This document shows, one piece after another, positions 5,443 to 52,564 of a stretch of DNA of 64,000 bases. The notes below the pieces were generated by a model. It saw nothing but the letters and a program-made list of their open reading frames with translations. It had not been told where the DNA came from and did not search any database. Every line of letters begins with the position of its first letter. Position 1 is the stretch's first letter. This stretch comes from Blastopirellula sediminis. Its GTDB lineage: Bacteria; Planctomycetota; Planctomycetia; Pirellulales; Pirellulaceae. The DNA lies in contig NZ_JAJKFT010000002.1 in the NCBI RefSeq assembly GCF_020966755.1, positions 558,001 through 622,000 of the forward strand, given 5' to 3'. The position numbers were made by a program, and so were the translations under genes.

Positions 5443-5493
5443 CGGGATCCAGCCTAGAAGTGTAGGAAGAAGTTCGTCACATTCGCCGCAACG

Positions 5494-20968: not shown

Positions 20969-20983
20969 GATTTTCGCTCGTCA

Positions 20984-23532: not shown

Positions 23533-24924
23533 CTAACGCGCGAGCTCGGCAGTTTGGGTAACCTTCGCTGCAAACATTTTCAAAAGATCTGTCGATTCTT
23601 GTCTCGTAAACTGGAATTGATCCTGTTTTAGCGACAAATAAATCTGATCGGCAGTCGTCGTAACGCTGAACGCCGCGGCCGTCCGCGGCCGAACCGGCGG
23701 TAGCCCGATCAAAGAGTCGTAAACCAGATTTCCGGCAACCAGACCTCCGTTGGCCATCGGCAGTTTCGTGGCGAAGCGACGCCACGAGTTGCCCAAGTTC
23801 GTCAGCACCGCGGTAGCGAAACAGAAGCGACCGTTGACGATCCAGGGATGAGCGCCGACCGACTGGATTCCAGCGAGTCCTCCGATAAAGTAGCGCGACA
23901 AGCGATCGCCACGAATGGCGCTCGTTTCCCAGGCCAAGGACTTGCGCAACTCTTCCGGCTTCTGACAGAAATCGCCGCGACGCGTTAGAAAGGCAAAGCC
24001 AACGTCGTTGGTTGTGGGCATCGCATTATCTCCCTTGCCGCGAAGATTCTGCGGCATCAGCACCCGCAACTGTCGGCGTTTGACGGGATAACCTTGCGAC
24101 TCGATCTGTTCATGCAGCGTCAGGAACAGGTCACGCAGCAGCAAGTCGTTGAGCGTCACCTTGGAGTCGGTCGAGAAGCGCCGCAGGGCAACGGTCGTCT
24201 CGTTGGACAGCGCGACCGTCACCGGACCGCTTTGCTTCCGTTCCGCTCCCGCTTCCAGCACCGGCAATCCGCTGGTCAGCGGCAAAGGGCGATCGGCAAA
24301 GAAGCGAAACGCCGATGCAATGCCGCTCGCCACGTCGCACAGTCCCTGCCAGACGCTGGGATTCTCGAGGGCCGAGTTACAACGATTCAGCAAACGTTCC
24401 GGCTCCAGCTTGCGCGGCGTCGCCGGCTTGGCGCCCGGCGTTGCGTTGTTGTATCCGGTGAGGAAGTCTTCGATGAAGGCGAAAATGCCGACGCCATCGG
24501 CGCACGCGTGATGAAAGTGAAACATCACGGTCGAGCGTTCGCTGCCGCTTCGGACGTAAATGCGCAGACCAACGTCTTTGGTCAGATCGATCAGCTCGTC
24601 ATAGCCGGTGACGTACGGCTCGCCATATTCGCCCCAATCGACGTCGGGCTTGCGATCGGACAATCGCCAGACCAGGCCCCGCTTTTTGTCCTGCTCGATG
24701 ACGCTGCGGAAGATCGGGGCGCGATCGAGGGCGAACTGGAGACCTTCTTCAAACGGACCTCGTTCGACCGTTCCCTGAAAACGGGCTTCGCCGTCGCAGA
24801 ACATCGGATACTGCGTACGCCCATCGGCGAACATGAACTTCTCTACCGGCGAAAGCGGCAGAGGAAAGATCTTGTTCAGCGTAGCGTCGTAGTCCGATTT
24901 AGGAACGTCTGCGACCTGCGACAT
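23533..24924 (-). CDS. HHxxxDG acyltransferase (condensation-domain / wax-ester-synthase superfamily)
   Basis: A 463-residue cytoplasmic protein, the last gene of the lipid operon. The catalytic motif of the CoA-dependent acyltransferase superfamily is intact: FHFHHACADG, with H138-H139 and D143-G144. Length and the two-lobed pattern match stand-alone condensation or WES/PapA-type enzymes. These join an acyl thioester (on CoA, ACP or an acyl-AMP-derived carrier) to an alcohol or amine. With an aminotransferase and a thioester-reductase-like enzyme in the same operon, amide or ester formation on a reduced chain end is the likely job. It follows the AMP ligase after 29 bp. Confidence 0.8.
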   Translation of the reverse strand: MSQVADVPKSDYDATLNKIFPLPLSPVEKFMFADGRTQYPMFCDGEARFQGTVERGPFEEGLQFALDRAPIFRSVIEQDKKRGLVWRLSDRKPDVDWGEYGEPYVTGYDELIDLTKDVGLRIYVRSGSERSTVMFHFHHACADGVGIFAFIEDFLTGYNNATPGAKPATPRKLEPERLLNRCNSALENPSVWQGLCDVASGIASAFRFFADRPLPLTSGLPVLEAGAERKQSGPVTVALSNETTVALRRFSTDSKVTLNDLLLRDLFLTLHEQIESQGYPVKRRQLRVLMPQNLRGKGDNAMPTTNDVGFAFLTRRGDFCQKPEELRKSLAWETSAIRGDRLSRYFIGGLAGIQSVGAHPWIVNGRFCFATAVLTNLGNSWRRFATKLPMANGGLVAGNLVYDSLIGLPPVRPRTAAAFSVTTTADQIYLSLKQDQFQFTRQESTDLLKMFAAKVTQTAELAR

Positions 24925-24953
24925 CGGCGGGCTCCCGACAGAATAACGTGGGA

Positions 24954-26456
24954 CTAAGGAAGTTGATCGCGAACGATCTTTCCGGCCGGCGAACGGGGCA
25001 AAGCGTCGACCAGGGCGATCGCTTGCGGACGTTTGTAATAGACCAGATGCTCTTCGCAGTAAGCGCGAATCGACAGTTCGTCGACGCCCGGCTCGACGGC
25101 GATCGCCGCTTTGACGATCTCGGCCTGCGAAGCCAGGCGACTTCCATATACTTTCACTTCACGAACGCCCGGCATGGCGGCGATCGTTTCTTCCACTTCG
25201 CAGGGAACGACCTTCAGCCCCAGGACGTTGATCATTTCGCCGGTACGACCCCGCAAATGAATCACGCCGTCTGGCGCAATCCGGGCCAGGTCGCCAGTTT
25301 CAAACCAACCGTCAGCGTCCCACGGATGGAGGATAGCGCCTTGATCGTCGAGGTAGCCGGCCATCATCGAGCTGTTTTGAATATGCAGCTTACCGACGCC
25401 CGGTTCGAGACCTTGGTCATCCGCATCCGCCGGCGGACGGACGCAAACCTTCACGCCGTTCATCGGGGGACCAACCCGCCCGTCGACATCTTCGCCGTCG
25501 GCGGTGGTCGCGACCGAGATGCCGCCGGTTTCGGTCGTTCCGTAAAGGGGGCAAACGGTAACGCCGGTCTTCTTGCGGAACTGGACCGCCGAACGCCGCG
25601 GCATCATCGAGCCCGCGGTCAGCAGCCAACGCAACCGACCAAAGTCGATCGCACCGCCGAACAGAAGCATATCGATATGCGCCGGCACCATCGGCAACAC
25701 GGTGACCGGATAGTCGCGGAGAACCTCGCCTAGCTTTTTGATGCTGAAGTTGGCGGTGGTCACGATGCTCGCGCCAGAGAGCATCGGGGTCATCACCGTC
25801 AGGCCATAGCCATAGGCATGGCTCATCGGCGGAATCGCGAACAGGCAGTCATCTTCGCAAATCGCCATCGTCGCGGCGTAGTGCCGCGCTTCTTCCATCG
25901 CCGCAAAGCCCGGCCGGAGGGCGATCTTCGGCAAACCGGTCGAACCGGAGGTCGGGTGAAGCGGCACGCCGCGCAGTTCCGGTCCCGGCACAAAGCTCGG
26001 CTCAGGAAAAGCGCCCCAGAGCAAGTTCCAACCGGCGAGCGGCTGGAGTTGCTGCGAAGCGGTCAGTACCGACGCCACTTGCGCGTCTCCACCGAAAGCA
26101 GCCAGCCACTTCACGCCGAAGCGTTTCGAGTAGCGAGCCAATTCGGCCGACGGCGTCATCACGTGCACCAGCAGCGGCGAAGCCTCGCAGGCCAGCAGCG
26201 CTGCAAGCACCGCCGGAAAGAGGGGCCCGTTGCCGATTGTGACCAAGACGCGATCGCCAGCGGCCAAACCCTGCTGGCGAAAGGCGCGCACGAGCGATTC
26301 TCGTGCGCGAGCGAACTCATCCGCCGAAATGACGCGCCCCGCGTCCAGGTCAATGATGCAGCCGCGATAGTTCTCGACGGCATCCAGGATCGGCGAGGCG
26401 CTCCAGATCGAATCGGAAATTACCGGACCAGACACTGACGTGCTCCATCTTCCCAT
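24954..26456 (-). CDS. AMP-dependent acyl/aryl ligase (ANL superfamily)
   Basis: A 500-residue adenylate-forming enzyme with the core motifs: P-loop-like HPTSGSTGLPKIALRPG, the A5 motif LYGTTETGG, ETGDLARIAPDGVIHLRGR, and the C-terminal lysine in LPRSPAGKIVRDQL. It should activate a carboxylic acid as acyl-AMP and transfer it to CoA or a carrier. The exact start is uncertain: the ATG at 26456 overlaps the aminotransferase by 37 bp, and a GTG at 26435 would overlap by 16. It probably supplies the acyl group used by the HHxxxDG enzyme encoded next, or primes the synthase. Confidence 0.87.
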   Translation of the reverse strand: MGRWSTSVSGPVISDSIWSASPILDAVENYRGCIIDLDAGRVISADEFARARESLVRAFRQQGLAAGDRVLVTIGNGPLFPAVLAALLACEASPLLVHVMTPSAELARYSKRFGVKWLAAFGGDAQVASVLTASQQLQPLAGWNLLWGAFPEPSFVPGPELRGVPLHPTSGSTGLPKIALRPGFAAMEEARHYAATMAICEDDCLFAIPPMSHAYGYGLTVMTPMLSGASIVTTANFSIKKLGEVLRDYPVTVLPMVPAHIDMLLFGGAIDFGRLRWLLTAGSMMPRRSAVQFRKKTGVTVCPLYGTTETGGISVATTADGEDVDGRVGPPMNGVKVCVRPPADADDQGLEPGVGKLHIQNSSMMAGYLDDQGAILHPWDADGWFETGDLARIAPDGVIHLRGRTGEMINVLGLKVVPCEVEETIAAMPGVREVKVYGSRLASQAEIVKAAIAVEPGVDELSIRAYCEEHLVYYKRPQAIALVDALPRSPAGKIVRDQLP

Positions 26457-27790
26457 CGTTCCAGCACTTCGTCGATGTCGGCCGAAGTGTGAGCGGTTGA
26501 CAGGAACATCGGTTCAAATTCATTCGGATGGAAGTAGACGCCGGCACGCTGCATGTGGTGCTGGAACTTGATGTAACGTTCGAAGTCGCAGTGACGGCGA
26601 ACGTCGCGGTAGTTGTACAGACCTTCGACTTCGGTCTTGGTGATCAAACCGGCCAACAGCGGGCCGAGGTGATAGACTTGGGCCGGAATGCCGAGACGGG
26701 CGTAGATCTCTTTGATGCCGCCGGCCAACTGATCGGCGATCGCGTGGAGGTGAGCGTAGATGTTCTCTTTGTCGCCCAACACCGTATCGAGAACCGCTTC
26801 CGCCGCCGACATGACGACCGCATTGCCCGAGAAGACGCCGCCGTGGAACAACGGGCCGTTGGCGATGCAGCTCATGATTTCGGCCGAGGCGCCGAACGAA
26901 CCGACCGGGTAACCGCCACCCATCGCCTTCGAGACGACGGTGATGTCGGGCGAGACCATGTAGTGCTCTTGGGCGCCGCCCGCCGAGACCCGCATGCCGG
27001 TGATGACTTCGTCGAAGATCAACAGACCGCCGCGATCGTGGATCATTTCGCGGACCGATTGCAGATAGCCGTCGCGCGGCAACAGCAAACCGGCGTTGCC
27101 GGAGATCGGCTCCATGATGACCGCGGCCGCTTCGTCGCCGTGCTCTTCCAGGCAGCGCTGCAGCGCGTCCAGGTCGTTCCACTGGCAGACGATGACGTCG
27201 GTCAGCGAGTCGCTCATGCCGGTGGTGCCGGGGATCGCCGGACCGTAGCCGCATTCCGGCAACATTTCGAGCGGAGCGTGGTACTTCGTGAAGACCGCTT
27301 CGCTCCAGCCATGATAATGGCCTTCAAACATGATCAGCTTTTTGCGGCCGGTGTAGGTGCGAGCCAGGCGAATCGCCGAGGCGCACGCTTCGGTGCCCGA
27401 GTTGGCGAAGCGGAGCAGTTCGATGCACGGGAAGAGCTGCTTCAGCTTTTCGGCGACGCGAATCGTCACTTCGGTCGGAAAGCCGAGCTGGCTGCCGTGT
27501 TCCGAGATCTGACGATAGACCGCTTCGATCACTTGCTTCGGGCGGTGGCCCAAGAGCAGCGGCCCATAGGCCATGTTCAAGTCGATGTATTCGTTGCCGT
27601 CGACGTCCCACAGGCGGGCGCCTTCGCCGCGGTCGGCGACCAGCGGAATGTGGTACGGCAGAACTCGCATCGTGCTGCTGTCGCCGCCGGCGATGCTTTT
27701 ACGTCCGCGTTCCAGCGTCTTCGCACTTTGCGCCGCTCCGCTTGAATCCGTTTTGGAAATCATTCCCGTCATGGCATTACCCCCGTTCAT
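26420..27790 (-). CDS. class III PLP-dependent aminotransferase (glutamate-1-semialdehyde aminomutase-like)
   Basis: A 456-residue fold-type I PLP enzyme. The PLP lysine is K288 (VVSKAMGGGYP) and the ring-nitrogen aspartate D260 (LLIFDEVITGMR). FANSGTEACASAIRLAR is the phosphate-binding region. Overall it resembles HemL-like aminomutases/aminotransferases found in secondary-metabolite loci. Its place between a thioester-reductase-like enzyme and an acyl ligase points to transamination of a chain aldehyde into an amine, rather than haem synthesis. It overlaps the ligase gene and lies 13 bp after the reductase gene. The start could also be the ATG at 27772 (MTGMISKTD). Confidence 0.88.
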   Translation of the reverse strand: MNGGNAMTGMISKTDSSGAAQSAKTLERGRKSIAGGDSSTMRVLPYHIPLVADRGEGARLWDVDGNEYIDLNMAYGPLLLGHRPKQVIEAVYRQISEHGSQLGFPTEVTIRVAEKLKQLFPCIELLRFANSGTEACASAIRLARTYTGRKKLIMFEGHYHGWSEAVFTKYHAPLEMLPECGYGPAIPGTTGMSDSLTDVIVCQWNDLDALQRCLEEHGDEAAAVIMEPISGNAGLLLPRDGYLQSVREMIHDRGGLLIFDEVITGMRVSAGGAQEHYMVSPDITVVSKAMGGGYPVGSFGASAEIMSCIANGPLFHGGVFSGNAVVMSAAEAVLDTVLGDKENIYAHLHAIADQLAGGIKEIYARLGIPAQVYHLGPLLAGLITKTEVEGLYNYRDVRRHCDFERYIKFQHHMQRAGVYFHPNEFEPMFLSTAHTSADIDEVLERWEDGARQCLVR

Positions 27791-27803
27791 TGCAGTGTGT
27801 CTT

Positions 27804-29300
<1,497 letters not shown>

Positions 29301-29336
29301 TCTGAAAAAACTTGCCCTACGTTTCCGAACAATCGA

Positions 29337-30101
29337 CTACACGTGAACCGCGGCGCCGCCGTCGACGACCAGCGTTTCGCCTTGAACCAGATCCGACAAT
29401 GGCGAGGCCAAAAACAGGACCGCGTCCGCAATGTCTTCGACCGACAGCATGCGATCGCCCATCATCGTCTTGTCTTTGCGATGATCGAACATCTCGCCGG
29501 CGCCCGGCAGACGCTTCGTCGAGTCGGTTTCGACCAAGCCCGACTTCACGATGTTGACGTTGACGCCCTTGTCGCCGACTTCCAGCGTCAAGTGACGAGC
29601 CAGGCTTTCCAGCGCGGCTTTCGAGCTGCCGATCAGCCCGTACCACGGCAAAGCCATGTCCGAACCGTGGCTGCTGATGCCGATCACCTTCGCGCGGCCC
29701 TTGCTCTTCACCAGCAGCGGCAGACCGGCTTGCACCAGGTAGAGCATCGCCAACACGTTGGTGTGGTAGGTGTTTTCAAAGTGTTTTTCGTTGGCGGCCA
29801 TCAGCGGACGGAAACCGCCGGTCGCCGCGTTGCTGACGATGATGTCGAGCTGCTGGATGTGCTCGCCGATGTATTCCATCATCGATTCGACGTCGTCTTT
29901 CTGGCTCACGTCGGCCTTGACCACGAAGGAGCGTCGCCCCATCGCGCGAATTTCTTTGGCCGTTTCCATCGCGGCGGTACGCGAAGTGACGTAGTTGACG
30001 ATCACGTCGGCGCCTGCTTCGGCCAGTCGCAATGCGCAAGCTCGCCCCATGCCGCGCGAACTTCCGGTAACCAGTGCGATACGTCCGGAGAGGTTAATCA
30101 T
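29337..30101 (-). CDS. FabL-like enoyl-ACP reductase (SDR with Tyr-x6-Lys)
   Basis: A 254-residue classical-size SDR with the NADP-binding TGSSRGMGR. The catalytic spacing is Y154-x6-K161 (PWYGLIGSSKAALE), the signature of FabI/FabL enoyl reductases; ketoreductases have Tyr-x3-Lys, and the residue at that position (157) is isoleucine. NAATGGFRPLM and the C-terminal GETLVVDGG also resemble FabL. The giant synthase contains KR and DH but no recognisable ER domain, so this enzyme can supply enoyl reduction in trans. Its start overlaps the Rieske gene's stop (ATGA), so the two are translationally coupled. Confidence 0.82.
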   Translation of the reverse strand: MINLSGRIALVTGSSRGMGRACALRLAEAGADVIVNYVTSRTAAMETAKEIRAMGRRSFVVKADVSQKDDVESMMEYIGEHIQQLDIIVSNAATGGFRPLMAANEKHFENTYHTNVLAMLYLVQAGLPLLVKSKGRAKVIGISSHGSDMALPWYGLIGSSKAALESLARHLTLEVGDKGVNVNIVKSGLVETDSTKRLPGAGEMFDHRKDKTMMGDRMLSVEDIADAVLFLASPLSDLVQGETLVVDGGAAVHV

Positions 30102-31261
30102 GTTGCGTTTCCTGAAAATCGATTTTGAATTACATCGCTTTCGTCTCGACAGCTCGCGACTCCGCTCGCTTTCTCGACGTATTTCTGAAAATGAAAAATG
30201 CGTTCTTCACGCGTGGAGATCAGACCGCCCATCGGCTCTTCCGGGGCGGAAATCCCCTCTTGAACCTGCACGAGCACGCCGGCGTCTTCCGCGCCGACCT
30301 TGGTCAAAAAGTCTCGCGCCCATTTCGTGATGAAATAGCGATTCCATACGCGTCGCAGACGTCCTTTTTCGCCGATGTGGCACATCAAGCGGACGACGGA
30401 CAACGACTGGCTGGGCGAAACCGGAATCACGCACTCCACCCAGCGATACAGCGACAATCGCGCCATCATCACGTTGGGGTAGTGCAGGATGTGTTCATAC
30501 GATCCGTCGCGCGGACGGCCGACCAGCAAGTGGCCGATCGCATCCATCGTAGCGCGAACCGAACGTTCTTCACTGTAATCAACGAACATCGACGTCCAAC
30601 TTTCTTCCATGGTGTGTTGGATATCTTTTTCTTCCGGAAAGGTTCCGAATGTTTGCGGATGCACGGTTGTAGTGTGGTAGCTTTCCAGCGCGTTCTCGAC
30701 CAGGCACTTCCAGTTGGCGTTGATCGTCCGCGTAACGGTGATCGCCGTATGCATTTCGGGCGTGAACCAGCTTTCGTACAGCTCGAACTTGTCGCCGAGA
30801 AACTCTCGCAGGCTCGGGCCTTCGTCGGTCAGGTTCAAAAAGATCAATTGGCCGCAGCGCTCGATCCGAAATTTGCGCAAACCAAGCATTCCCTGGGCGA
30901 GCGGACGGAACGTCTTCGCGTCGGGGATCTTGCGAACGTTGCCGGTCTCGTCGAACTCCCAGCCGTGATATTGGCAGTGGAGTCGTTCGGTCGCGCCGCA
31001 CGGTTTGCAGGTCAATTTGGCGTAGCGATGCGGGCAGACGTTCAAGAAGCCGCTGACCTCATCTCCCTTGCGCCACAGGATGATCGGACGACCGAAGATC
31101 TCCAGCGTCAGGAACGAGCCGTCTTTCGGCAGTTCGTCCATCAGCGCCACGGCATGCCACGTCGGCATCATCAGCGTTTCCATCTCCTGATCGAAGACGG
31201 ATTGATCGAAGTAGGACTGACGCGGCAGAACCTGGGGATGATGTTCCTTGCTTACAAACAT
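30098..31261 (-). CDS. Rieske non-haem iron oxygenase, alpha-subunit type
   Basis: A 387-residue protein. The Rieske [2Fe-2S] ligands are C76-P-H78 and C96-Q-Y-H99. The catalytic domain has a mononuclear iron site in ENALESYHTTTVHP (H196, H201). Length and layout match ring-hydroxylating and related Rieske oxygenases, which hydroxylate, desaturate or cyclise. No dedicated ferredoxin or reductase gene is adjacent, so electrons must come from general partners. In this operon it probably oxidises the acyl chain or head group; aromatic ring attack is less likely given the lipid context. Confidence 0.88.
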   Translation of the reverse strand: MFVSKEHHPQVLPRQSYFDQSVFDQEMETLMMPTWHAVALMDELPKDGSFLTLEIFGRPIILWRKGDEVSGFLNVCPHRYAKLTCKPCGATERLHCQYHGWEFDETGNVRKIPDAKTFRPLAQGMLGLRKFRIERCGQLIFLNLTDEGPSLREFLGDKFELYESWFTPEMHTAITVTRTINANWKCLVENALESYHTTTVHPQTFGTFPEEKDIQHTMEESWTSMFVDYSEERSVRATMDAIGHLLVGRPRDGSYEHILHYPNVMMARLSLYRWVECVIPVSPSQSLSVVRLMCHIGEKGRLRRVWNRYFITKWARDFLTKVGAEDAGVLVQVQEGISAPEEPMGGLISTREERIFHFQKYVEKASGVASCRDESDVIQNRFSGNAT

Positions 31262-31953
31262 GATGAAAGCTCCTGCTGGGGATAGGCTGGAGTATCATTG
31301 GCCGTCGCTTGCCAGACGGCCGTCGCCATTCCCCGACTCGACGGACGAGTCCACATCGCCAGGGGAGCGAGTTGGCGTCCGTACAACGTGCAGCGAACTT
31401 CATGGTCGCAATACGATTCGATTTCGACGCCGCGGGGGTTCCACGTTTGACCGGCGCCTTGCGATTTGAAAATCGCTTCTTTCAAGCCCCACAGCAGCGA
31501 GGCCGACTCGGGGCGTTCGGCGAGCCAGGCTTGCTCCCGCTCGGTAAACCAAGCGGCCGAGAAGTGCCTGTCTTGCGGAACGTCCCAAGCGAGATCGACG
31601 CCGATCGAGGTCGCGTCGGTCGTCATGCCGACCAGCAGCGCGCCGCCGGCATGCGAAACCGAAATGCGGTAGTTGGTCGGCTTGCCGTCGACGAAGACTT
31701 CCGGAGCTTTCCCCAGCCCGTCCGACGAACGCGACAAGACTTCCACGCGGCGCAGGTCGGCCGGTTCGCACGAGCGCGTAATCAAACGCTTGGCGATCCA
31801 GCGCCCGCCGAGCCATTGGCTGCGGCGGTCTGCGTGGGCGAAGAAGTCCAGTTCGTGCCGTTCGGCGGCGCTCAACCAAGCGGCCGAAGCGGAAATGGGG
31901 AGGTTGCCCGCATCGGCGACATAGCGCACCAGCCGGGCAGGAGCATACGTCAT
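31252..31953 (-). CDS. Sfp-type 4'-phosphopantetheinyl transferase
   Basis: The start is set at 31953 (MTYAPARLVRYVA), giving 233 residues, because this ATG overlaps the synthase stop (ATGA). It ends 10 bp inside the Rieske gene. The signatures are ISVSHAGG, IGVD at 117-120 and WGLKEAIFK at 155-163 (W155, K158, E159, K163). The usual third acidic residue two positions after D120 is alanine (A122), a substitution at a magnesium ligand of Sfp-like enzymes. It should convert the three apo-ACP domains of the synthase to holo form. Confidence 0.9.
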   Translation of the reverse strand: MTYAPARLVRYVADAGNLPISASAAWLSAAERHELDFFAHADRRSQWLGGRWIAKRLITRSCEPADLRRVEVLSRSSDGLGKAPEVFVDGKPTNYRISVSHAGGALLVGMTTDATSIGVDLAWDVPQDRHFSAAWFTEREQAWLAERPESASLLWGLKEAIFKSQGAGQTWNPRGVEIESYCDHEVRCTLYGRQLAPLAMWTRPSSRGMATAVWQATANDTPAYPQQELSSCL

Positions 31954-34900: not shown

Positions 34901-37900
34901 CATCTTTGATGCCGATCGTCGCATGAACGACGTCACGGCGTTTCTTTTCCATGCGGCACGACTTGTCGATGCCGGCGCCATGCAGGATGCCGGAGATCGG
35001 ACCGTCGACCCGACGAATCTCGTCGAGCGCCTTGGCCAGCGATTCGCGGTTCGAGACGTCGCATGCGTGGTACGTGGCCGAGACGCCGTTGTCGACGAAC
35101 GCTTGCAGCGACTTGTCGATTTCCAGACTCTTCTGCACCCGTTCCCAAGCCTGCGGCGCTTGCTGTCCCGCTTTGCGGGCCGCAATCATCGTGTCGGCCT
35201 TCAGCTTGTTCAGTCCCGCTTCGTCCAGGCTACGCCAGGCCGGATCGATCGTCGGCAGTTCGCTGGAACCGATCAAGTGGAGCTTCAGCCCGTAACGTTT
35301 GCCAAGTTCCAGGGCACAAGCGGCCGTGATGCCGCGGGCGCCGCCGGTGATGACCCAAACCCCTTGCGGCAGTTGGGCCGTCGCATTGGCCACGCCAGGT
35401 CGATCCATCGCAAACGGAACGCGACGAACGCCGCCGGCGTACGAAACTTCGTAGTCTTGATTGCCCGAAGCGAGTTCAACCAGGATGTTGCTGGCGATCT
35501 GCTTCGGCGCGTCTTGCAGGCTCGTGTCGAACGCTTTGACGCGCGGGCCTTTGCCGCCACGCATGACGGTGAACTCGATGAAGAGCGCCTTCATCAGGCC
35601 GGTCAGGGCGCCACCTTCAACAGCGGTCGCACCGCGGCTGAAGCCGAAGTCGCCGCCGAGGGCGGTCACCGCCACGACGGTCGTCTTTTCGAGCCAACCG
35701 CCCGCCTCGGCGAGGGTCAACCACTTCTGACAGACGAACAGCGGAGTTTCCATCGCAGTCGGTTGCACCCCGTTCCAGCTCGCTTCGACGCCAAACTGCA
35801 GATGCTTCCGCTCGTCGCGAGCAGTCGTCATAAACAGATGAGGCGCCGGACCAGCCGCACAGATCGCTTCGATCTGAGCGACGGCGCTGTCGATATCGCT
35901 GGCGTCCGCAATCTGATAAACCGTGACGCCGGCTTGCTGCAGTTGTTCGATGAGAGCGGCGGCAGTCTCGCCGCTACCCAGAACAATCGCAGCCCCTTCG
36001 TAAACCATCGAGGTAGGTGCGGTCTGCGCCAGCGGCGAATCGCACATTTCCAGCTCAAAGCGAGCCGTCACATTGGCCGGAGCCAGCGGAGTCGCTTCGC
36101 CGCGCTGCGGAGCGGCCGGAGCCGACGAGTTACCGTCGTCCAGCAGTCCGGTGAGCGAGTAGCTCTCGATCGAGCGCGACATGGTCGTGCTCTTCAGCGA
36201 TAGTTGACCGGCGCCGAAATCGAAGAGGAACGCCAACGCGTCTCCTTCGGCCGTCAACAACAAGTTGGTGACGTCGGTGACCGAGATTTCGCCTTGTTCG
36301 GTGGCGGTCGATCCGCCTGCCAGCGCCATCAGGCGATTGCCGCAGTGGATCGTCGCTTGATCGCTGACGATTTGACGATCGCCGCCGCACGATTGAACGC
36401 TCGACAGTCGACCGGTCGCCAGTTCGCCCAGGATCACGCTGCTCGCGCTGCTGGGCGTTTTCAACGCGACGTCGATCGCCGATTCCAGGTTCACGCCGTT
36501 TTGCAGGACGGCGGCGGAAGCTTTTTCGCCGCTGAAAGTCAGTCCGGCGGCGTTCACGCCGCCCAGTACGAGTGCGGTGCCGATTGGCGCCACAGCGACG
36601 TGCGACAAGCCGCTGGTCGGCTTACGCAGGAACGCCGCCAGGCGAATCGTCTCACGCATCGGATTGATCGCAGGGGACTCCATCTGAGCGGCATGCGCCA
36701 GCGAACCGTCGCTCGCCGCGGCTTGCTCCATCGAGGCCAGCGTTTCCGCGACCGCGAAGTGATGGGCCACCACATTGCTCAGGGGAGCTTCAATCGCGTT
36801 GGCGATGCCGAGCAATTCGTCCCATTGATCGGGCGAAAGGGTTTGGATCGCATTGGCCGATTGAGTCGAGCCGGGAAGCTCGTCGATCGACTCGCCGACG
36901 TACTCCGCATAAGTGCGGAGTACGCGACGAATCTCGTCCCGATATTGGCTACCGTGACGCCACCCCATCTCGTACGGCGTACCGACGAGAGCGAGCGGCG
37001 CTGCGGCGCCATTGTCCAAAGTCTTACCAGAGAGTTCCGCAGGAGCGCCATTAATAACGCTCACCGCGGCCGGCGCATCTTCTTTAATTTCCAGAGCCGG
37101 CGCCGGAGCGGCCAGGGAAAAAGATGCTGGTTCCTCGGTGGTCGCCGAAGCGGTGCCCGAGAGGAAGTTCAAAACGTGACGCAGGGTCGGGAAGTCGTCG
37201 AGCGACAAGTCAGTCGCCGACGTGCTGATCTCGAAGTACTCCTGCAGTTCGCCGAACAGCTGAGCCTTCTTGATGCTGTCGATGCCGAGGTCCGCTTCCA
37301 TGTCAGCGTCCAGGTCGACCACTTCCGGCGGGTAACCGGTTTGTTCAACGACGAAGTTGATCAGGAACTTTTCGAGTTCCGCCGTGCTGGCTCCGCCCGA
37401 AGCCGGGGCTTCCGCAACCGGAGCAGCCGCCGGAGCCGGGACGACCGGAGCGGCAGGAGCCGGAGCAGCGACCGGGGCCGCGGCGACCGGTTGGCTTTCG
37501 CTGGCTTGGCCGTTGGCCGAGAGGAAGTTGAGCACGTGACGTAGGGTCGGGAAGTCGTCGAGCGACAGGTCGGTCGCCGACGTGCTGATCTCGAAGTATT
37601 CCTGCAGTTCGCCGAACAGCTGAGCCTTCTTGATGCTGTCGATGCCGAGGTCGGCTTCCATGTCAGCGTCAAGGTCGACCACTTCCGGCGGATAGCCGGT
37701 TTGCTCGACGACGAAGTTCACCAGGAACTTCTCCAGCTCGGCCGTGCTGGCGCCAGTCGAAGCGGCCGCGGCAGGCTGAGCCGGGGCAACCGGAGCGGCA
37801 GGAGCCGGAGGTGCGACCGCAACCGGGGCGGGAGCAACTGGAGCAGGAGCAACCGGAGCAGGAGCAGCGGCCGGAGCGGCGGCGGCGCCTTGTCCGCTGG

Positions 37901-40900
37901 CGTTCAGGAAGTTCATGACGTGACGCAGGGTCGGGAAGTCGTCGAGCGACAGGTCGGTCGCCGACGTGCTGATCTCGAAGTACTCCTGCAGTTCGCCGAA
38001 CAGCTGAGCCTTCTTGATGCTGTCGATGCCGAGGTCGGCTTCCATGTCAGCGTCCAGGTCGACCACTTCCGGCGGATAGCCGGTTTGTTCAACGACGAAG
38101 TTCACCAGGAACTTCTCCAGGTCGACGCCGTCGCTCTTGCTGGCGGCCGCCACCGGCGCAGGCGCCGCAGGGGTCGGAGCAGGAGCAGGCGGCGCTGGCA
38201 TCGGCGCCGGCGCCACCGGAGGCGCAGGTGCAGGAGCGGGCGCTGCCGCAAACGTCGGTTTCGGAACAATTGGCGCTGCGACCGGTGCCGGCGCGGGAGG
38301 CGCGACTGCGGCCGGAGCCGGAGTCGGTGGCGCTGCCGCAGGCGGAGCCTGAGCAGAGCCGCGCATCTTCGCGCGTCGACGCTCGGTAGCGTCAAAGTGC
38401 GGAATATCGTCCATCAGGTTCTTCTCGTTGGTGCTAATCGGACTACGGGAGGAAGCGACTGGCTGCGGCTTAGCTGGCGCGCGGTCGGTCGAAGAAGACA
38501 TCGTTTGGGAGACGGCGGCGGCGGCCGGCTGCGGCGGAGCGAACTTCGCACGCGACTCGGTCGCCGTCACGGCAGCGGCCGGCTTCGGCTCGCTCGCGAC
38601 TGCGGCGCTGACTCCCAGGCATTCCAGCAACGCTTCGACGCACAAGATCGGCTCAATGCCGCCGCGCTTGGGATTGTCGGAAGCGATGACGGTAGCGTCG
38701 CCGGAGAGAATCCGGCGATTTAGCTTGGTAAGCGTTTGCTGCGGCCCGACCTCGACAAAAATTGTCGGAGTTTCGAGCGCCAGTTGTTCGATCAGCGGCG
38801 CGTATTTGACCGGCGTGGTCAATTGCACGCCCAGGTTGCGGCGGATTCGCGCCGGATCGTCGGTCAAGTTGTTGTCGACGGTGCTGATGAACGGCGTTTG
38901 CGGCGAACGCAACTCGGCCGTTTCCAGCGCCTGCTGCAACATGCGGCTCGAGCCGGCCATCAGCGGCGTGTGGAACGCCGCCGGAACCGCCAAAATGCGA
39001 GCCGGATACGACTTCGCGGCGAGCGCCTTCGACAATTGCTCCAGCGCCGTCAACTTCGCGCCGATCACCGTTTGGTCCGGAGCGTTGTAGTTGGCCAGGT
39101 AGGCCTGGCAGCCGCACGCGGTAATGATCGACTTGATCTCTTCCGGCGGAGCAGTCGTCGCCAGCAAACCGGCGTTATTGAGCGAGGTCGCGTTGATCCC
39201 GTCGCAGCGAGCGCGGGTCATACGAATCACCGCGTCGAGGTTCCAGACCCCAGCGGCGTAGAGGGCCGGGAACTCGCCGTAGCTATGTCCCAGCACCACG
39301 TCGGGCTTCACGCCTCGTTCGGCGAGCGCCGCCAGACAGATCAGGTCGGCCAACAGCATGGAGATCTGCGTCTTCCAAACGTCGGCGCCCAATTGGGTCG
39401 GAGCGTTCCAGGCCAATTCGGCGAAGGTCGGGTAACCGAGACGACGCATCGCAGCGTCGGCGTCGGCCATCATCTTCGCGGCGGCCGGCGATTGGCTCAC
39501 CAGGTCGCGAAGCATTCCTTCGTACTGCGATCCCTGGCCGGGGAAGAGGAAGGCGATGCGCGGTTTGGTCGAAAGCGGTTCGCGGCAGAAAATGCCTTGT
39601 TGTTCCAAGACCTGGCGCGACGCGGCGTTGCCCAGTTGCGGCGACGCCATGGTCAGCTTCTTGGCCAGCGACTCGGCGCTGTCAGCGACAATCGCCAAAC
39701 GGATCTTGTCGCTGGGCGCGAATTTGACCGTGTCAGCGGCCGAGAAGGCATGGCTTGGGTCCGCCATCGCAGCGTTGATCATCGTCTTCAATGCCGGCAG
39801 CGAAATGGCGCCAAAGCGGACGATCTTGGCCGACGACGAAGTCGGTTTCGCGACGGCCGGAGCCGCAGCTTTCGGCTTCGGCGGAACCGGCGTGCCGTCA
39901 TCCAGAATCAGGAAGAAGGCTTGTCCCTTCGACCAGTTGGCGACGGCGCCAAGGCCGCGACCGTTGAGTTTGACGTTGAACGAAGCGGTTTGCACGCTCG
40001 ACGAAGATCCGTTGAACGCCGCAGTCGGCTGTTGCAGCTGACGCGCCGCGGCAACTTCATGGTTTTGCGCTTCGAGCGCCGCTTTCAACACGGCGATCAG
40101 AGAGCTGCCGCCCCCCATGTTGCCCAGCTGCGCGGTCGCCGAGCTCAAGTGGAGCGGCTGTTCGCGTTCGGGCGACGAGTGTTCGTGGGCGATCGTCGCC
40201 AGCGCCTGCGCGACGCTCGCATTGTTTTCATCCGTTTCAATGTCGACGAATTGGATTTCGCCGGGGGCAATGTTCGCCATTTCGGCGGCTCGCTGGACCG
40301 CCAGACGCATCGCTTCAGCCGGCGACTCGTCCGACGCGACGCCGAGTCCGCGAATCACCGCACGAATCCGATCGCCGTCGCGACGCGCGTCGGCCAATCG
40401 CTTCAGCACCACCACCGCGGCGCCTTCGCTCGGCACAACGCCGTTGTAGCCGGCGTCGAGCACGTTCTTCGGAGCCCCGTCGCGATGCAAGTGGCCCGAC
40501 TCGCTCAAGCCTTGGAACATCGTCAGCCCCATCCGGCGTTGACCGGCGGCGCAGATCATCATGTCGTTGTCGCCCGACAGCAGCGAGTCGATGCAGAGCG
40601 AGATCCCCGACATGCCGGAGGTGGTGCCGCTGTCGATCGCCACGGCGCCGCCGTTCAGGTCGAGCGTCTTGCTGATTCGCGAAGCGAGCGTGCTGCTGGT
40701 GAAGCTGCCGGTTTCGTCCACCAACGCGGGCCACTTCTTCAGCAGCACGTTGGCGAAGTCTTGGTTGATCGCTTCAATCTTCTCGGCCGACAGACCGCGT
40801 TCGGTCAGCATCCGCTTCAGCTTGTGCTGCATCTCGGGGAGACGCAGACCCATTTCGAGTTGGTCGCCAAAGTCGCCGCCAAACTCGGTGCCGATCACGA

Positions 40901-42707
40901 CGCCGCAAAGTTCGCGCTGGATCGACTCGCGCGTGTAGCCAGCGTCGGCCAGCGCCTGTTCGCTGGCGTCCAGGAACATGAACTGCAGCGGGTCGGCTTC
41001 GGTGACTTGCTTCGGCGGAACCTTGTGTTTGCGCCAATCGTAGGCGTAGTCGTTGATGAAGCCGCCGAGAACTTTGATGCCGCTCGCTTCCGCCTTCTGG
41101 CGAGCCTTGGCCGACCAACGATCCGCCGACGGTTCCCCCTTCGGATCGGTCCCGTTCTGCAGGAGATCCCAGAACTGATTGATTTCGCTGGCGCCCGGCG
41201 CGATGCAGCCGAGACCAATGATCGCCACGGCGCGATCGTCCGCCGTTTCCGTAACGGGACGCGGACCGCCGGTGATTTGCTCAGCCGTTTGACCGACGTA
41301 TTCGTCGATCACGACGTGCATGTTCAAGCCGCCGATGCCGAAGGCGTTGACCGCAGCGGAACGAGGACCGCCGTCGGCCGGGGCCGGCCATGGCGCCGAT
41401 TGCATCGGCACGAAGAAGGGCGATTCGCTCCACGGCACCTTAGTGTTCAACTCTTTGATGTTGATCGCCGCCGGGAAGCGCTGGTGCTGCATGCTGAGGA
41501 TCGTTTTGATCATCCCCGCAATGCCGGCCGCTTCGAGCGCGTGGCCGATGTTGGCTTTGGCGCTGGTGATCGGAATCTTCTTGCCGCTCGGGAACTGCGG
41601 CTCCAGCACTTCGCGGAGCGTTTCCAGTTCGGTCGCGTCCCCCAGCTGGGTCGCCGTGGCATGGCATTCGAGATATTGCAGACGCGAGACGTCGACGCCG
41701 CGGCGATAGGCGCGACGCATCGCCCGCATCTGACCTTCTTTGCGGGGCGCCCACAGGCTCTTCCCTTTACCGTCGGTCGCGACGCCGAGACCGCGGACGA
41801 CCGCTTGAATTTTGTCGCCGTCGGCGATCGCGCGTTCCAGCGTCTTCATGACGAGCGCGACGTAACCTTCCGACATGATCAGGCCGTCGGCGTTCGAATC
41901 GAACGGGCAGCTGTCATTCTTGGTCAGCGTCTGAGCGGCGGAGAAGAGGACCAGCGAGTCGGACTTGCAGTCCGAAGCGCCGCCGACCACCACCATGTCG
42001 GCGCGGCCGCGCTGCAGCGCTCGGGCGCCCATCAGCATCGCGTGGAGCGACGAAGCGCAAGCCGAGTTGAGCGCCAACCACGAGCCGGTCAAGCCAAACG
42101 CACGGGCGACGGTGCCCGAGACCATGTTGCAGTTGAGATAGCGGAACCCTTCGGCGCCGTCCGGAATCGTCGCCATCAGCTCTTGCAGCAACTGCTGTTC
42201 GACTTCCAACCGCTGCTGCGGCGGCAGATCCTGGAACTGCGGCGTCGCTTCCAGCAGATCGATCGCTTCATCGAGATAAGCGCGGAAGGTCAACTCACCC
42301 AGGCGCGAGCTTCCTTGGGCGTGACCAATAAAGACGGAACAATTGCGATCCTTGAGCTGGAACGGATCGTATCCCGCGTGACGAAACGCTTCGGCCGCCG
42401 TTTCCGTCATCAACAAGTGCGTGTTGTCGACGGAGTCAATCAGGTCTTGGGGCAACGGGCAACGATCGCGATTGAACGTACGATCCGCAAGCGTCGCCGC
42501 TTTGGTCGAGTAAGTCTTGCCGCGAACGCCTTTGTCCGGATGGTAATAGATCTCACGGTTCAGACGGTCCGCAGGGACTTCGCTGACGGCGGACCGACCT
42601 TCCGAAATCAGTTGCCAATACTCATTCAAATTGGCTGCGCCGGGGAGACGGCACGCCATGCCGACAATCGCCACCGGGATATCGGTTCGATCAGTCGAGA
42701 TTGTCAT
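31950..42707 (-). CDS. giant PUFA-synthase-like type I polyketide/secondary lipid synthase (KS-CLF-AT-ACP3-C45-KR-KR-DH)
   Basis: 3585 residues. KS: about 10-470, triad C217, H349, H389. Second KS: about 490-940, with those positions T695, E824 and N863, so it is chain-length-factor-like. AT: about 1050-1365 (GQGS; S1142 in GHSYGEF; H1246). Pro/Ala linkers carry three ACPs with LGIDSIKK serines S1563, S1691 and S1811. Residues about 1895-2185 resemble peptidase family C45/acyl-CoA:6-APA acyltransferase (VGTPYEMGWRHGSQY; LVLGGVNAAGLTFSG). Two complete KRs follow (TGGARGIT near 2454 and 3006; active Tyr in QADYCLAS and SDYAAGN). A hotdog DH ends the protein (HRLRGKPLMP near 3330, Asp in ILDSALYACG near 3500). 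It builds an acyl chain iteratively from malonyl-type units on its own ACPs. No ER or releasing thioesterase is visible. First gene of the operon; cytoplasmic. Confidence 0.92.
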   Translation of the reverse strand: MTISTDRTDIPVAIVGMACRLPGAANLNEYWQLISEGRSAVSEVPADRLNREIYYHPDKGVRGKTYSTKAATLADRTFNRDRCPLPQDLIDSVDNTHLLMTETAAEAFRHAGYDPFQLKDRNCSVFIGHAQGSSRLGELTFRAYLDEAIDLLEATPQFQDLPPQQRLEVEQQLLQELMATIPDGAEGFRYLNCNMVSGTVARAFGLTGSWLALNSACASSLHAMLMGARALQRGRADMVVVGGASDCKSDSLVLFSAAQTLTKNDSCPFDSNADGLIMSEGYVALVMKTLERAIADGDKIQAVVRGLGVATDGKGKSLWAPRKEGQMRAMRRAYRRGVDVSRLQYLECHATATQLGDATELETLREVLEPQFPSGKKIPITSAKANIGHALEAAGIAGMIKTILSMQHQRFPAAINIKELNTKVPWSESPFFVPMQSAPWPAPADGGPRSAAVNAFGIGGLNMHVVIDEYVGQTAEQITGGPRPVTETADDRAVAIIGLGCIAPGASEINQFWDLLQNGTDPKGEPSADRWSAKARQKAEASGIKVLGGFINDYAYDWRKHKVPPKQVTEADPLQFMFLDASEQALADAGYTRESIQRELCGVVIGTEFGGDFGDQLEMGLRLPEMQHKLKRMLTERGLSAEKIEAINQDFANVLLKKWPALVDETGSFTSSTLASRISKTLDLNGGAVAIDSGTTSGMSGISLCIDSLLSGDNDMMICAAGQRRMGLTMFQGLSESGHLHRDGAPKNVLDAGYNGVVPSEGAAVVVLKRLADARRDGDRIRAVIRGLGVASDESPAEAMRLAVQRAAEMANIAPGEIQFVDIETDENNASVAQALATIAHEHSSPEREQPLHLSSATAQLGNMGGGSSLIAVLKAALEAQNHEVAAARQLQQPTAAFNGSSSSVQTASFNVKLNGRGLGAVANWSKGQAFFLILDDGTPVPPKPKAAAPAVAKPTSSSAKIVRFGAISLPALKTMINAAMADPSHAFSAADTVKFAPSDKIRLAIVADSAESLAKKLTMASPQLGNAASRQVLEQQGIFCREPLSTKPRIAFLFPGQGSQYEGMLRDLVSQSPAAAKMMADADAAMRRLGYPTFAELAWNAPTQLGADVWKTQISMLLADLICLAALAERGVKPDVVLGHSYGEFPALYAAGVWNLDAVIRMTRARCDGINATSLNNAGLLATTAPPEEIKSIITACGCQAYLANYNAPDQTVIGAKLTALEQLSKALAAKSYPARILAVPAAFHTPLMAGSSRMLQQALETAELRSPQTPFISTVDNNLTDDPARIRRNLGVQLTTPVKYAPLIEQLALETPTIFVEVGPQQTLTKLNRRILSGDATVIASDNPKRGGIEPILCVEALLECLGVSAAVASEPKPAAAVTATESRAKFAPPQPAAAAVSQTMSSSTDRAPAKPQPVASSRSPISTNEKNLMDDIPHFDATERRRAKMRGSAQAPPAAAPPTPAPAAVAPPAPAPVAAPIVPKPTFAAAPAPAPAPPVAPAPMPAPPAPAPTPAAPAPVAAASKSDGVDLEKFLVNFVVEQTGYPPEVVDLDADMEADLGIDSIKKAQLFGELQEYFEISTSATDLSLDDFPTLRHVMNFLNASGQGAAAAPAAAPAPVAPAPVAPAPVAVAPPAPAAPVAPAQPAAAASTGASTAELEKFLVNFVVEQTGYPPEVVDLDADMEADLGIDSIKKAQLFGELQEYFEISTSATDLSLDDFPTLRHVLNFLSANGQASESQPVAAAPVAAPAPAAPVVPAPAAAPVAEAPASGGASTAELEKFLINFVVEQTGYPPEVVDLDADMEADLGIDSIKKAQLFGELQEYFEISTSATDLSLDDFPTLRHVLNFLSGTASATTEEPASFSLAAPAPALEIKEDAPAAVSVINGAPAELSGKTLDNGAAAPLALVGTPYEMGWRHGSQYRDEIRRVLRTYAEYVGESIDELPGSTQSANAIQTLSPDQWDELLGIANAIEAPLSNVVAHHFAVAETLASMEQAAASDGSLAHAAQMESPAINPMRETIRLAAFLRKPTSGLSHVAVAPIGTALVLGGVNAAGLTFSGEKASAAVLQNGVNLESAIDVALKTPSSASSVILGELATGRLSSVQSCGGDRQIVSDQATIHCGNRLMALAGGSTATEQGEISVTDVTNLLLTAEGDALAFLFDFGAGQLSLKSTTMSRSIESYSLTGLLDDGNSSAPAAPQRGEATPLAPANVTARFELEMCDSPLAQTAPTSMVYEGAAIVLGSGETAAALIEQLQQAGVTVYQIADASDIDSAVAQIEAICAAGPAPHLFMTTARDERKHLQFGVEASWNGVQPTAMETPLFVCQKWLTLAEAGGWLEKTTVVAVTALGGDFGFSRGATAVEGGALTGLMKALFIEFTVMRGGKGPRVKAFDTSLQDAPKQIASNILVELASGNQDYEVSYAGGVRRVPFAMDRPGVANATAQLPQGVWVITGGARGITAACALELGKRYGLKLHLIGSSELPTIDPAWRSLDEAGLNKLKADTMIAARKAGQQAPQAWERVQKSLEIDKSLQAFVDNGVSATYHACDVSNRESLAKALDEIRRVDGPISGILHGAGIDKSCRMEKKRRDVVHATIGIKDGGIVHLAALTQHDPIRHFIGFGSIAGRLGSFGQADYCLASDLLCKLMGAYRRQRPWVRAVGFHWHGWDEVGMAARPETKSVLNDKSALKLMPLAEGIGHLIREIEADVPRGEILITERRHWQRFADGLGVLAESRAEAPAAAPAKPAEPVSSDPLGPADASVELRTERCELKLIDAPLPTGTAAAPTFTGPVWILGENADAVELEQRLAQAGVEVYRFGARADLDETLAWLDSLHPEKPAQRLFLMTSRDAVSTDPLSAAEIDRRRHEGIIFPYFVAQNWYKRNLKFPEAGTGDLVAAISLGGDFGFESTVQLPDGGGVAGFVKSLHIEDSRLENRGARCKVIDAPASESPAALFDAMMRELAADQPEVEVSWIGGVRRVVRPIGTPLAMGPDANIPRGGVWAVTGGARGITAIAARELAAKYGWKLHLLGKSPAPLADAVWRNFDEEQLKTYKTQITREAVASGGSPGQAWDRVLKDCEIFNNLQKFADAGVQATYHQCDVTDRDAVAAVLEEIRKTDGPITGLMHGAGLIEPGRFDHKRRPFVEKLIRAKFDGLMHLFALTKNDPLTHCIGFGSISGRFGGNGLSDYAAGNDSMSKALDWFRAARPDCTTLCIHWESWEGAGIATLSRFAWGPRSVMKMKYMLPEEGVRRLEEELAGGGYKAETLYTFGDFYPMFYPNEQFPLGEFKPRSGEAVDGSFPLVATSRTEGDELVGDVPLDPINDPFLALHRLRGKPLMPVVVTLEALREAAELASGKKTVAFCDVDMIDGLAFHTDNATTAQARAKMVGDNLAECRWTCDFRNRTGGLIQKDRLYLQAKVEVADQPAALTAELPPFPTEWSAVTYPEDAAIYHGTPFRCLKALSCDASGGWGHIVAEPLADLTKPERVEGWRVPSCILDSALYACGCQLYMHSEGAVSLPRKIERLELGRMPSDGENCYVHFVCRDVAEKSALYDLTLFGENGEVILKAYGYQKVILGRGGVA
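37161..38122 (-). repeat. three near-identical ACP-coding repeats inside the synthase gene
   Basis: Three about 220-bp copies, 37905-38122, 37521-37740 and 37161-37380, differ at only a handful of bases, and the latter two are exactly 360 bp apart. They encode the ACP core with LGIDSIKKAQLFGELQEY. The separating 130-180 bp encode divergent Pro/Ala-rich linkers. Identity extends to silent positions, which suggests recent duplication or ongoing gene conversion. Confidence 0.9.
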
Positions 42708-52247: not shown

Positions 52248-52564
52248 GTTCCGTCAGCTCCCAGTAGTTTCCGATTGGAAAAAGCGAATAGATGAATGAC
52301 GCCGATCAGAGCGAGACGGCGTCAAAACGCGCCGCACCCCTCGACTTCTGGACAATCGTAGCTCTGAGGGGAAAACCGACCCATGACAATACGCGCATAT
52401 CTATTGACAATATGCACGCACGGTTTACGCTCTCCTAACAGGCGTCGCGTAGATCCTTAACAGGCGAATTAAAACCGGCGATAGTCCCCCATTACCACTA
52501 GTTTGAACCGCATTTTCCGCCATTGAGCCGACTCGTTGGCGACAACCTTCTGGCTGAGCTTGTT
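52248..52564. other. 317-bp divergent region between the DUF1559 gene and the second XylR-type gene
   Basis: Holds the direct repeats and promoter candidate at 52384-52431 (described separately). The remainder, about 52250-52380, shows no clear structure or reading frame. The regulator frame is open from 52523, but the usual XylR start and the better context favour the ATG at 52565. Confidence 0.5.
52384..52431 (+). promoter_or_regulatory. direct-repeat operator overlapping a sigma-70-like promoter
   Basis: TGACAATACGCGC (52384-52396) and TGACAATATGCAC (52405-52417) are direct repeats matching at 11 of 13 bases, 21 bp apart, i.e. two helical turns, as AraC/XylR dimers use. The second copy contains TTGACA (52404-52409), spaced 16 bp from TACGCT (52426-52431), a plausible -35/-10 pair reading toward the regulator gene. 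Autoregulation by the adjacent XylR-type protein is inferred. Confidence 0.55.

What the first reader, a model, noticed from the sequence alone, without database searches (positions are those of the whole stretch)
23533..42707. Eight-gene operon for an unassigned amino- or acyl-modified secondary lipid
Seen: eight leftward genes joined by overlaps or gaps of at most 36 bp, encoding an iterative synthase, PPTase, Rieske oxygenase, FabL-like reductase, thioester-reductase/SCP2 protein, aminotransferase, AMP ligase and HHxxxDG acyltransferase. Known: each family's general chemistry, and that reductive release plus transamination makes long-chain amines in some natural-product pathways. Inferred: a chain made on the synthase is saturated or left unsaturated, released as an aldehyde, aminated, oxidised by the Rieske enzyme and acylated, giving an N-acyl alkylamine or amino-lipid. 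I know of no characterised pathway with this exact set.
Basis: partly seen in the sequence, partly recalled or inferred. Interest (0 to 1): 0.9.

Follow-up and report, generated by a model that had tools for sequence, protein, structure and literature searches.

The report
Planctomycete lipid operon with acid-loading module
A marine planctomycete carries an undescribed gene cluster that probably builds a long reduced carbon chain on one giant enzyme and supplies it with an activated amino acid-like building block, rather than turning the chain end itself into an amine as first proposed.

Summary
The eight leftward genes are real, at the stated coordinates, with gaps of -37 to +36 bp and intact motifs. 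All eight, in this order, occur in 10 genomes including Blastopirellula marina DSM 3645. An MBL-fold hydrolase and a divergent MMPL transporter accompany them in all 10.

The interpretation changes. The aminotransferase (AMT) travels with the AMP ligase (same strand, -31 to +15 bp in 18 of 18 measurable loci), not with the thioester reductase (TR), which stays with synthases lacking any such AMT. In one relative the same kind of ligase and MBL follow a histidine/phenylalanine-type ammonia-lyase instead. AMT plus ligase therefore most likely make and activate a small amino-carboxylic acid that primes or caps the chain; TR releases the chain separately. The acid is unknown; 3-aminobenzoate is a lead only.

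Unreported before: the synthase contains a degenerate C45 autoproteolytic acyltransferase domain. Of 31 scorable loci, 9 keep its Gly-Cys nucleophile; all 20 MBL-bearing ones have lost it, but these are one clade.

New variant of PUFA-type 'secondary lipid' clusters; product unproven.

The parts
31950..42707 (-). Iterative synthase, 3585 aa: KS - CLF - AT - 3 ACP - C45 relic - KR - KR - DH
41280..42677 (-). KS domain with Cys (NSACASS), CHAT, NIGH
39828..41240 (-). Second KS without active Cys (DSGTTSG): chain-length-factor-like
38709..39551 (-). AT domain (GHSYG)
37158..38120 (-). Three ACP domains (GIDSI at residues 1560, 1688, 1808); ends approximate
35718..36989 (-). Degenerate C45 autoproteolytic acyltransferase-like region without nucleophile Cys; far end approximate
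   Evidence: 42 bits to NF040521 (cut-off 85); alignments
34428..35690 (-). First KR domain (approximate ends)
32928..34340 (-). Second KR domain (approximate ends)
31953..32870 (-). DH domain with HxxxGxxxxP
31252..31953 (-). PPTase (Sfp-like, ACPS family), 233 aa
30098..31261 (-). Rieske non-heme iron oxygenase, alpha-subunit type
29337..30101 (-). FabL-like SDR enoyl reductase (Y-x6-K)
27804..29300 (-). Thioester reductase (NAD_binding_4); C-terminal 130 aa unassigned
26420..27790 (-). GSA-type class III aminotransferase
24954..26456 (-). AMP ligase (acyl-CoA-ligase type), overlaps AMT by 37 bp
23533..24924 (-). Stand-alone condensation/acyltransferase protein, HHACADG
43130..43975 (-). MBL-fold hydrolase of the YtnP/AiiA lactonase kind (HLHWDH)
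44133..46442 (+). MMPL/RND transporter, divergent from MBL

Best explanation
A PUFA-synthase-like ('secondary lipid') cluster of the Blastopirellula lineage made of two joined units. Core unit: one giant KS-CLF-AT-ACP3-KR-KR-DH synthase, switched on by its own PPTase and helped by a trans-acting FabL-like enoyl reductase, builds a largely reduced chain; the thioester reductase releases it as aldehyde or alcohol. The condensation-type protein then joins it to a second group as ester or amide, and the Rieske enzyme, present in only some members, hydroxylates or desaturates the chain. Added unit: the GSA-type aminotransferase makes a small amino-carboxylic acid, the overlapping AMP ligase activates it, and it serves as starter on the synthase ACPs or as the acyl group that the condensation protein attaches; the MBL hydrolase edits or releases thioesters. 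The MMPL protein exports the product. Shown here: gene content, motifs, gene order and its conservation, AMT-ligase linkage, an ammonia-lyase in the AMT's place in one relative, decay of the C45 domain. Inferred: every chemical step; the acid (3-aminobenzoate from 3-dehydroshikimate is the best single guess, perhaps 1 in 4); starter against cap.
For: AMT and ligase on the same strand with hit ends -31 to +15 bp apart in 18 of 18 measurable loci. AMT, ligase and MBL in one row in G049, G299, G276, G180, G284 and G366, in G284 about 32 kb from TR. G290 has no such AMT in its whole genome (in the sample, not among the hits) and carries a HAL/PAL-family lyase (520 bits) before a ligase of the same 20-row clade (SH-aLRT 100; 49% to its nearest member) and an MBL. 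TR accompanies 50 of 55 synthases and is fused to the synthase in G014, G183, G194, G200 and G244, none with AMT on the stretch. The nearest models of the ligase are acyl-CoA ligases, all below cut-off. Of 149 columns invariant in 17 cluster AMTs, 24 match 4zm3 (PctV) only and 8 match all three HemL only.
Against: The lyase case is one genome, and the ligase tree carries long-branch warnings. In the window's own clade of 11, TR and AMT hit ends are 106-142 bp apart (13 bp between the genes here). MBL is not seen after the ligase in G322 and G409. Three AMT genomes (G285, G322, G409) show no synthase at E 1e-190; all are draft assemblies. 42% identity to PctV is matched by Roseomonas plasmid AMTs (40-42%), one of which lies among sugar-type genes, so it does not fix the substrate; PctV joins the cluster AMTs at only 88 support on a long branch. 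GSA-type AMT domains act on a chain in mycosubtilin and are proposed to in zeamine (PMC3870968, PMC3547906, passages). No chemistry was measured.
Confidence: 0.52

Rival explanations
1. One reading: TR releases the chain as an aldehyde, AMT turns it into a long-chain primary amine, the ligase activates a fatty acid and the condensation protein makes an N-acyl alkylamine.
For: TR and AMT adjacent in the window's clade of 11 genomes; zeamine and myxochelin B precedents for aldehyde transamination (PMC3547906, passage); tambjamine TamH makes C12 amine (PMC9594044, passages).
Against: AMT follows the ligase, not TR, in five further loci; TR lives without AMT in most synthase clusters; a lyase takes AMT's place in G290; TamH's transaminase is of another class III type.
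Confidence: 0.25
2. AMT works on beta-ketoacyl-ACP intermediates as in mycosubtilin, placing amino groups inside the chain, and the ligase loads a fatty starter.
For: Same GSA-type superfamily (PMC3870968 passages); AMT beside a KS-type synthase in many loci.
Against: The mycosubtilin AMT is a far weaker match (178 bits) than 4zm3 (337) or HemL (295); no embedded AMT domain in the synthase; lyase in AMT's place in G290.
Confidence: 0.1
3. AMT-ligase-MBL is a separate pathway that only sits next to the synthase; the synthase operon makes a plain fatty alcohol or wax-type ester.
For: In G284 the unit is about 32 kb from TR, in G276 on the other strand; AMT-ligase without a detected synthase in G322 and G409.
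Against: 15 of 18 AMT genomes of the sample have the synthase against 82 of 396 overall; the genes overlap within one operon in 10 genomes.
Confidence: 0.1

Closest known systems
Zeamine / fabclavine clusters (PUFA-like synthase, AMT, KR, TR, free condensation domain)
   Same: PUFA-like KS/CLF synthase, GSA-type AMT, TR, an SDR of about 255 aa, stand-alone condensation protein, exporter genes (PMC3547906, passages read)
   Different: AMT is a separate gene tied to a ligase, not fused to PfaD; no PfaD; no NRPS partner among the genes scanned; AMP ligase, Rieske and MBL added; single-chain synthase
Pfa-type secondary lipid synthases (Shulse and Allen 2011, PMC3098273, passages read)
   Same: KS, CLF, AT, several ACPs, KR, DH and a PPTase
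   Different: All on one chain with two KR domains and a C45 relic; no PfaD-type ER; PfaA model below cut-off; Blastopirellula not named in that paper's main text
Tambjamine TamA/TamH fatty-amine route (PMC9594044, passages read)
   Same: Adenylating enzyme, reductase and class III transaminase in one pathway
   Different: TamH is a TA-TR fusion with a YgjG/PigE/CrmG-type transaminase and an AAR-type reductase; here a separate GSA-type AMT and an NAD_binding_4 TR
Aryl-acid-primed systems (PctV of pactamycin; aryl polyene and flexirubin loading): recalled, apart from PctV's activity (PMC5879953, passage)
   Same: An enzyme that makes an amino or aryl acid next to an AMP ligase feeding an iterative synthase
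   Different: Single-chain type I synthase with TR; acid not identified
C45 / isopenicillin-N acyltransferase family (NF040521, PF03417)
   Same: Domain detected inside the synthases, above cut-off and with Gly-Cys in relatives
   Different: Embedded in a megasynthase; in the window below cut-off and without nucleophile

Membership tests
Pfa-type PUFA / secondary lipid synthase | KS with paired CLF, AT, tandem ACPs, KR, DH | tested here: met
Pfa-type PUFA / secondary lipid synthase | PfaA subfamily model TIGR02813 above cut-off | tested here: not met
   933.3 bits against 1010.1
Pfa-type PUFA / secondary lipid synthase | PfaD-type (nitropropane dioxygenase) enoyl reductase | tested here: not met
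   none among the 8 proteins or the neighbours scanned
Zeamine/fabclavine-type polyamino lipid | TR, GSA-type AMT and free condensation protein with a PUFA-like synthase | tested here: met
Zeamine/fabclavine-type polyamino lipid | AMT fused to PfaD, and a PKS-NRPS partner line | tested here: not met
   not among the genes scanned
Zeamine/fabclavine-type polyamino lipid | AMT acts on chain intermediates or the released aldehyde | not testable with these tools
   needs an assay; linkage argues against; zeamine AMT could not be brought in (error)
PctV-like 3-aminobenzoate synthase | Closer to PctV than to HemL or MycA | tested here: inconclusive
   41.9% against 36.7-37.8%, joined at SH-aLRT 88 on a long branch; 24 against 8 private columns; Roseomonas AMTs equally near
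PctV-like 3-aminobenzoate synthase | Converts 3-dehydroshikimate | not testable with these tools
   needs an enzyme assay
C45 autoproteolytic acyltransferase (window domain) | Model above cut-off and Gly-Cys nucleophile | tested here: not met
   42 bits against 85; Cys absent
C45 autoproteolytic acyltransferase (relatives G048, G101, G237) | Model above cut-off and Gly-Cys nucleophile | tested here: met
   137.5, 141.1, 105.6 bits; GC kept
SCP2 domain in the TR protein | SCP2 model above cut-off, or a confident fold | tested here: not met
   E 0.26; prediction unusable, pLDDT 42.8, so the fold itself stays open
Heterocyst glycolipid (Hgl) synthases | HglE/HglC-type KS in phylogeny | not tested
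   considered from memory only

The most novel reading that the evidence does not exclude
This family of planctomycete megasynthases carries an internal C45 Ntn domain that cuts the synthase at Gly-Cys and uses the freed Cys to offload or transfer the chain; in the Blastopirellula lineage that domain died, release passed to the thioester reductase and a free MBL hydrolase, and a portable aminotransferase-ligase unit came in that primes the chain with an amino-aryl acid, giving a new class of exported amino-aryl lipids.
Probability: 0.15. Interest if true: 0.85.

Novelty: new variant of a known kind. Interest (0 to 1): 0.55.

Why it matters
It adds an undescribed branch (82 of 396 genomes sampled in the order carry a related synthase) to the PUFA-type synthases known for omega-3 fats and zeamine antibiotics. 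It suggests that tailoring units (aminotransferase-ligase, lyase-ligase, a luciferase-methyltransferase set) are swapped around one core. It also exposes a C45 autoproteolytic acyltransferase domain inside a megasynthase, for which no report was found in the searches. Blastopirellula marina DSM 3645 carries the cluster, so the product can be sought directly.

Tried and rejected
Beta-transamination and plain aldehyde amination were considered and ranked lower (see rivals). The SCP2 label could not be confirmed. Structure models of the TR C-terminus and of the C45 relic had pLDDT 42.8 and 36.8; no fold search was made with them. The named-genome scan with the TR protein gave only two loci. Taking 42% identity to PctV as proof of 3-aminobenzoate was rejected once Roseomonas plasmid proteins proved equally near. 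The link between MBL and loss of the C45 Cys (MBL in 20 of 22 Cys-less loci and in 0 of 9 Cys-bearing ones; one fragment, G133, not scorable) lies in one clade of the tree and is not counted as independent evidence; several stretches are short contigs, and MBL was looked for only on the fetched stretches. The downstream PSCyt and DUF1501 genes are kept in the 4 genomes of the genus but not seen in the 6 fetched loci of the other genus, where one ORF family follows instead, identified by Pfam as hydantoinase/oxoprolinase in the one copy scanned (G089); they were left out of the cluster. In the AMT tree the own-genome rows other than L174 (HemL) were simply longest frames and may be non-coding; only L174 was used. 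In one search G284 was still labelled without AMT, ligase and MBL; they were found on the same contig later.

Full report
Observation. The eight genes exist as described on the minus strand from 23533 to 42707, with gaps of -4, -10, -4, +36, +13, -37 and +29 bp. Pfam supports each family. The synthase (3585 aa) reads KS, a second KS without the active Cys (DSGTTSG, chain-length-factor-like), AT, three ACPs, two KRs and a DH with HxxxGxxxxP. The Rieske, thioester reductase (TR), aminotransferase (AMT), ligase, condensation and PPTase motifs are present (motifs recalled). The SCP2 label for the reductase's tail is not supported. Just upstream lie an MBL-fold hydrolase on the same strand and a divergent MMPL transporter. 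The window lies in a 7.05-Mb genome. A genome of the same genus is Blastopirellula marina DSM 3645: its record in L067 has the contig length and place of G002.

Conservation. The order MMPL (divergent), MBL, synthase, PPTase, Rieske, ER, TR, AMT, ligase, C-domain occurs in 10 genomes: the window's, G001-G003 (same genus) and G084, G086, G087, G088, G089 and G091 (another genus, 72-74% KS-CLF identity). In G001 and G088 the PPTase rests on tblastn alone. G021 keeps the order without the Rieske gene. Downstream PSCyt and DUF1501 genes are shared within the genus but not with the six loci of the next one, which marks that end of the cluster.

The core without the amine genes. Related KS-CLF synthases (E up to 1e-190) occur in 82 of 396 genomes sampled from the order and 14 of 392 from the phylum. 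The close AMT (E up to 1e-135) occurs in 18 of the 396 order genomes (the handles show the same sample). 15 of the 18 have the synthase; G285, G322 and G409, all drafts, do not at that threshold. So 67 of 82 synthase genomes lack it. TR lies on the fetched stretch of 50 of the 55 synthases of the tree (not for G237, G366, G515, G726, G794) and is fused to the synthase in G014, G183, G194, G200 and G244. A Rieske gene sits between synthase and ER in several AMT-less clusters too. Within the window's clade of 25 rows, six genomes of the order sample (G283, G290, G303, G350, G379, G391) have the synthase and no such AMT. So synthase, ER, TR and often Rieske and a condensation-type protein are the core, and AMT-ligase-MBL is an addition.

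What the aminotransferase is coupled to. In all 18 loci where both could be measured, AMT and ligase lie on one strand with hit ends -31 to +15 bp apart. In a nineteenth, G322, the ligase follows directly but its hit is split; a twentieth, G285, is cut by a contig end. MBL follows the ligase in G049, G299, G276, G180, G284 and G366, but is not seen in G322 and G409. AMT-TR hit-end distances are 106-142 bp in the window's own clade of 11; in five other loci they are 2.6, 2.6 and 3.7 kb, 14.6 kb on opposite strands, and 32 kb. In G290 a HAL/PAL-family lyase (520 bits; MIO motif ASG; nearest solved relatives histidine ammonia-lyases) precedes a ligase of the same clade (49% to its nearest member; SH-aLRT 100, with long-branch warnings) and an MBL. 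An enzyme that makes a carboxylic acid in front of a ligase is the simplest reading of both arrangements. G303, G350 and G379 carry MBL with a different ligase; in G350 a luciferase-methyltransferase fusion and an FAD oxidoreductase lie beside it, with counterparts in G379. An enoyl-CoA hydratase-type gene recurs beside these units: identified by Pfam in G180 and G366, with homologues in G021, G290, G303, G350 and G379.

Which acid. The AMT is of the glutamate-semialdehyde type. The best solved match is 4zm3/4zm4 (337 bits; recalled as PctV, 3-aminobenzoate synthase, whose activity is described in a passage of PMC5879953), then HemL (295), with the mycosubtilin AMT far off (178). Identities are 41.9% to 4zm3 and 36.7-37.8% to two HemL chains; of 149 columns invariant in 17 cluster AMTs, 24 match 4zm3 only and 8 all three HemL only. 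But Roseomonas plasmid proteins are just as near (40-42%), one of them among sugar-type genes, and 4zm3 joins the group at only 88 support. 3-aminobenzoate is therefore a lead. Zeamine and myxochelin aminotransferases could not be brought in.

The hidden domain. Between the ACPs and the KRs many of these synthases carry a C45 autoproteolytic acyltransferase domain: 137.5, 141.1 and 105.6 bits in G048, G101 and G237 (cut-off 85), 42 bits in the window. Of 32 rows 31 can be scored: 9 keep the Gly-Cys nucleophile (G048, G092, G101, G181, G187, G237, G515, G794, G803) and 22 have lost it. MBL is present on the fetched stretches of 20 of those 22 (not G063, G660) and of none of the 9. All 20 fall in the window's clade, so this is at most a few events. 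A working copy would be expected, from the family's known behaviour (recalled), to cut the megasynthase in two and to carry acyl groups on the new N-terminal Cys; that is inference.

Literature. Full-text searches found no paper on this cluster or on a C45 domain in such synthases. Of the papers opened, passages only were seen: PMC3098273, PMC13291983, PMC3870968, PMC3547906, PMC9594044, PMC5879953, PMC12964715. Most subscription journals are not in the library.

Verdict. The reading as an N-acyl alkylamine pathway is possible but not the best supported; an acid-supplying aminotransferase-ligase module on a reductively released PUFA-type chain fits the comparative evidence better. The chemistry is unproven.

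Noticed in passing
35718-36989 (synthase residues about 1907-2330); intact in L046:3432-4844, L097:14365-15447, L099:3318-4670: C45 autoproteolytic acyltransferase domain embedded in PUFA-like megasynthases; nucleophile kept in 9 of 31 scorable loci, lost in the window.
   Followed up: partly
L122:12584-14245 (G290): HAL/PAL-family ammonia-lyase with intact ASG directly before a ligase of the window's kind and an MBL hydrolase.
   Followed up: partly
L131:119-3531 (G350), counterparts in G379: Luciferase-like monooxygenase fused to an O-methyltransferase, plus an FAD oxidoreductase, beside a related synthase with MBL and MMPL: another possible tailoring unit.
   Followed up: partly
L094/L095 (G092): Three KS-CLF pairs over two synthase genes and a Cys-bearing C45 domain, in the genus that elsewhere has the eight-gene cluster.
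   Followed up: no
L108, L109, L064, L110, L111 (G183, G194, G014, G200, G244): Thioester reductase fused to the N-terminus of the synthase, followed by Rieske and ER; a 568-601 aa ORF lies divergently beside it in all five, a B12-binding radical SAM protein in the one scanned (G014).
   Followed up: partly
19505-23437: PSCyt1/PSCyt2/PSD1 and DUF1501 genes directly downstream, kept within the genus; another ORF family (hydantoinase/oxoprolinase in L082:461-4279) stands there in the next genus.
   Followed up: yes
2068-6654: AcrB-type RND pump with an HlyD-type adaptor, minus strand, about 17 kb downstream of the operon; whether related is unknown.
   Followed up: no
15963-17129 (-) and 52523-53764 (+): Two XylR-like regulators (periplasmic-binding domain plus AraC-type HTH) flanking the region.
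   Followed up: no
7690-12669: 1659-aa protein with DUF7133, laminin-G-like and HEAT domains.
   Followed up: no
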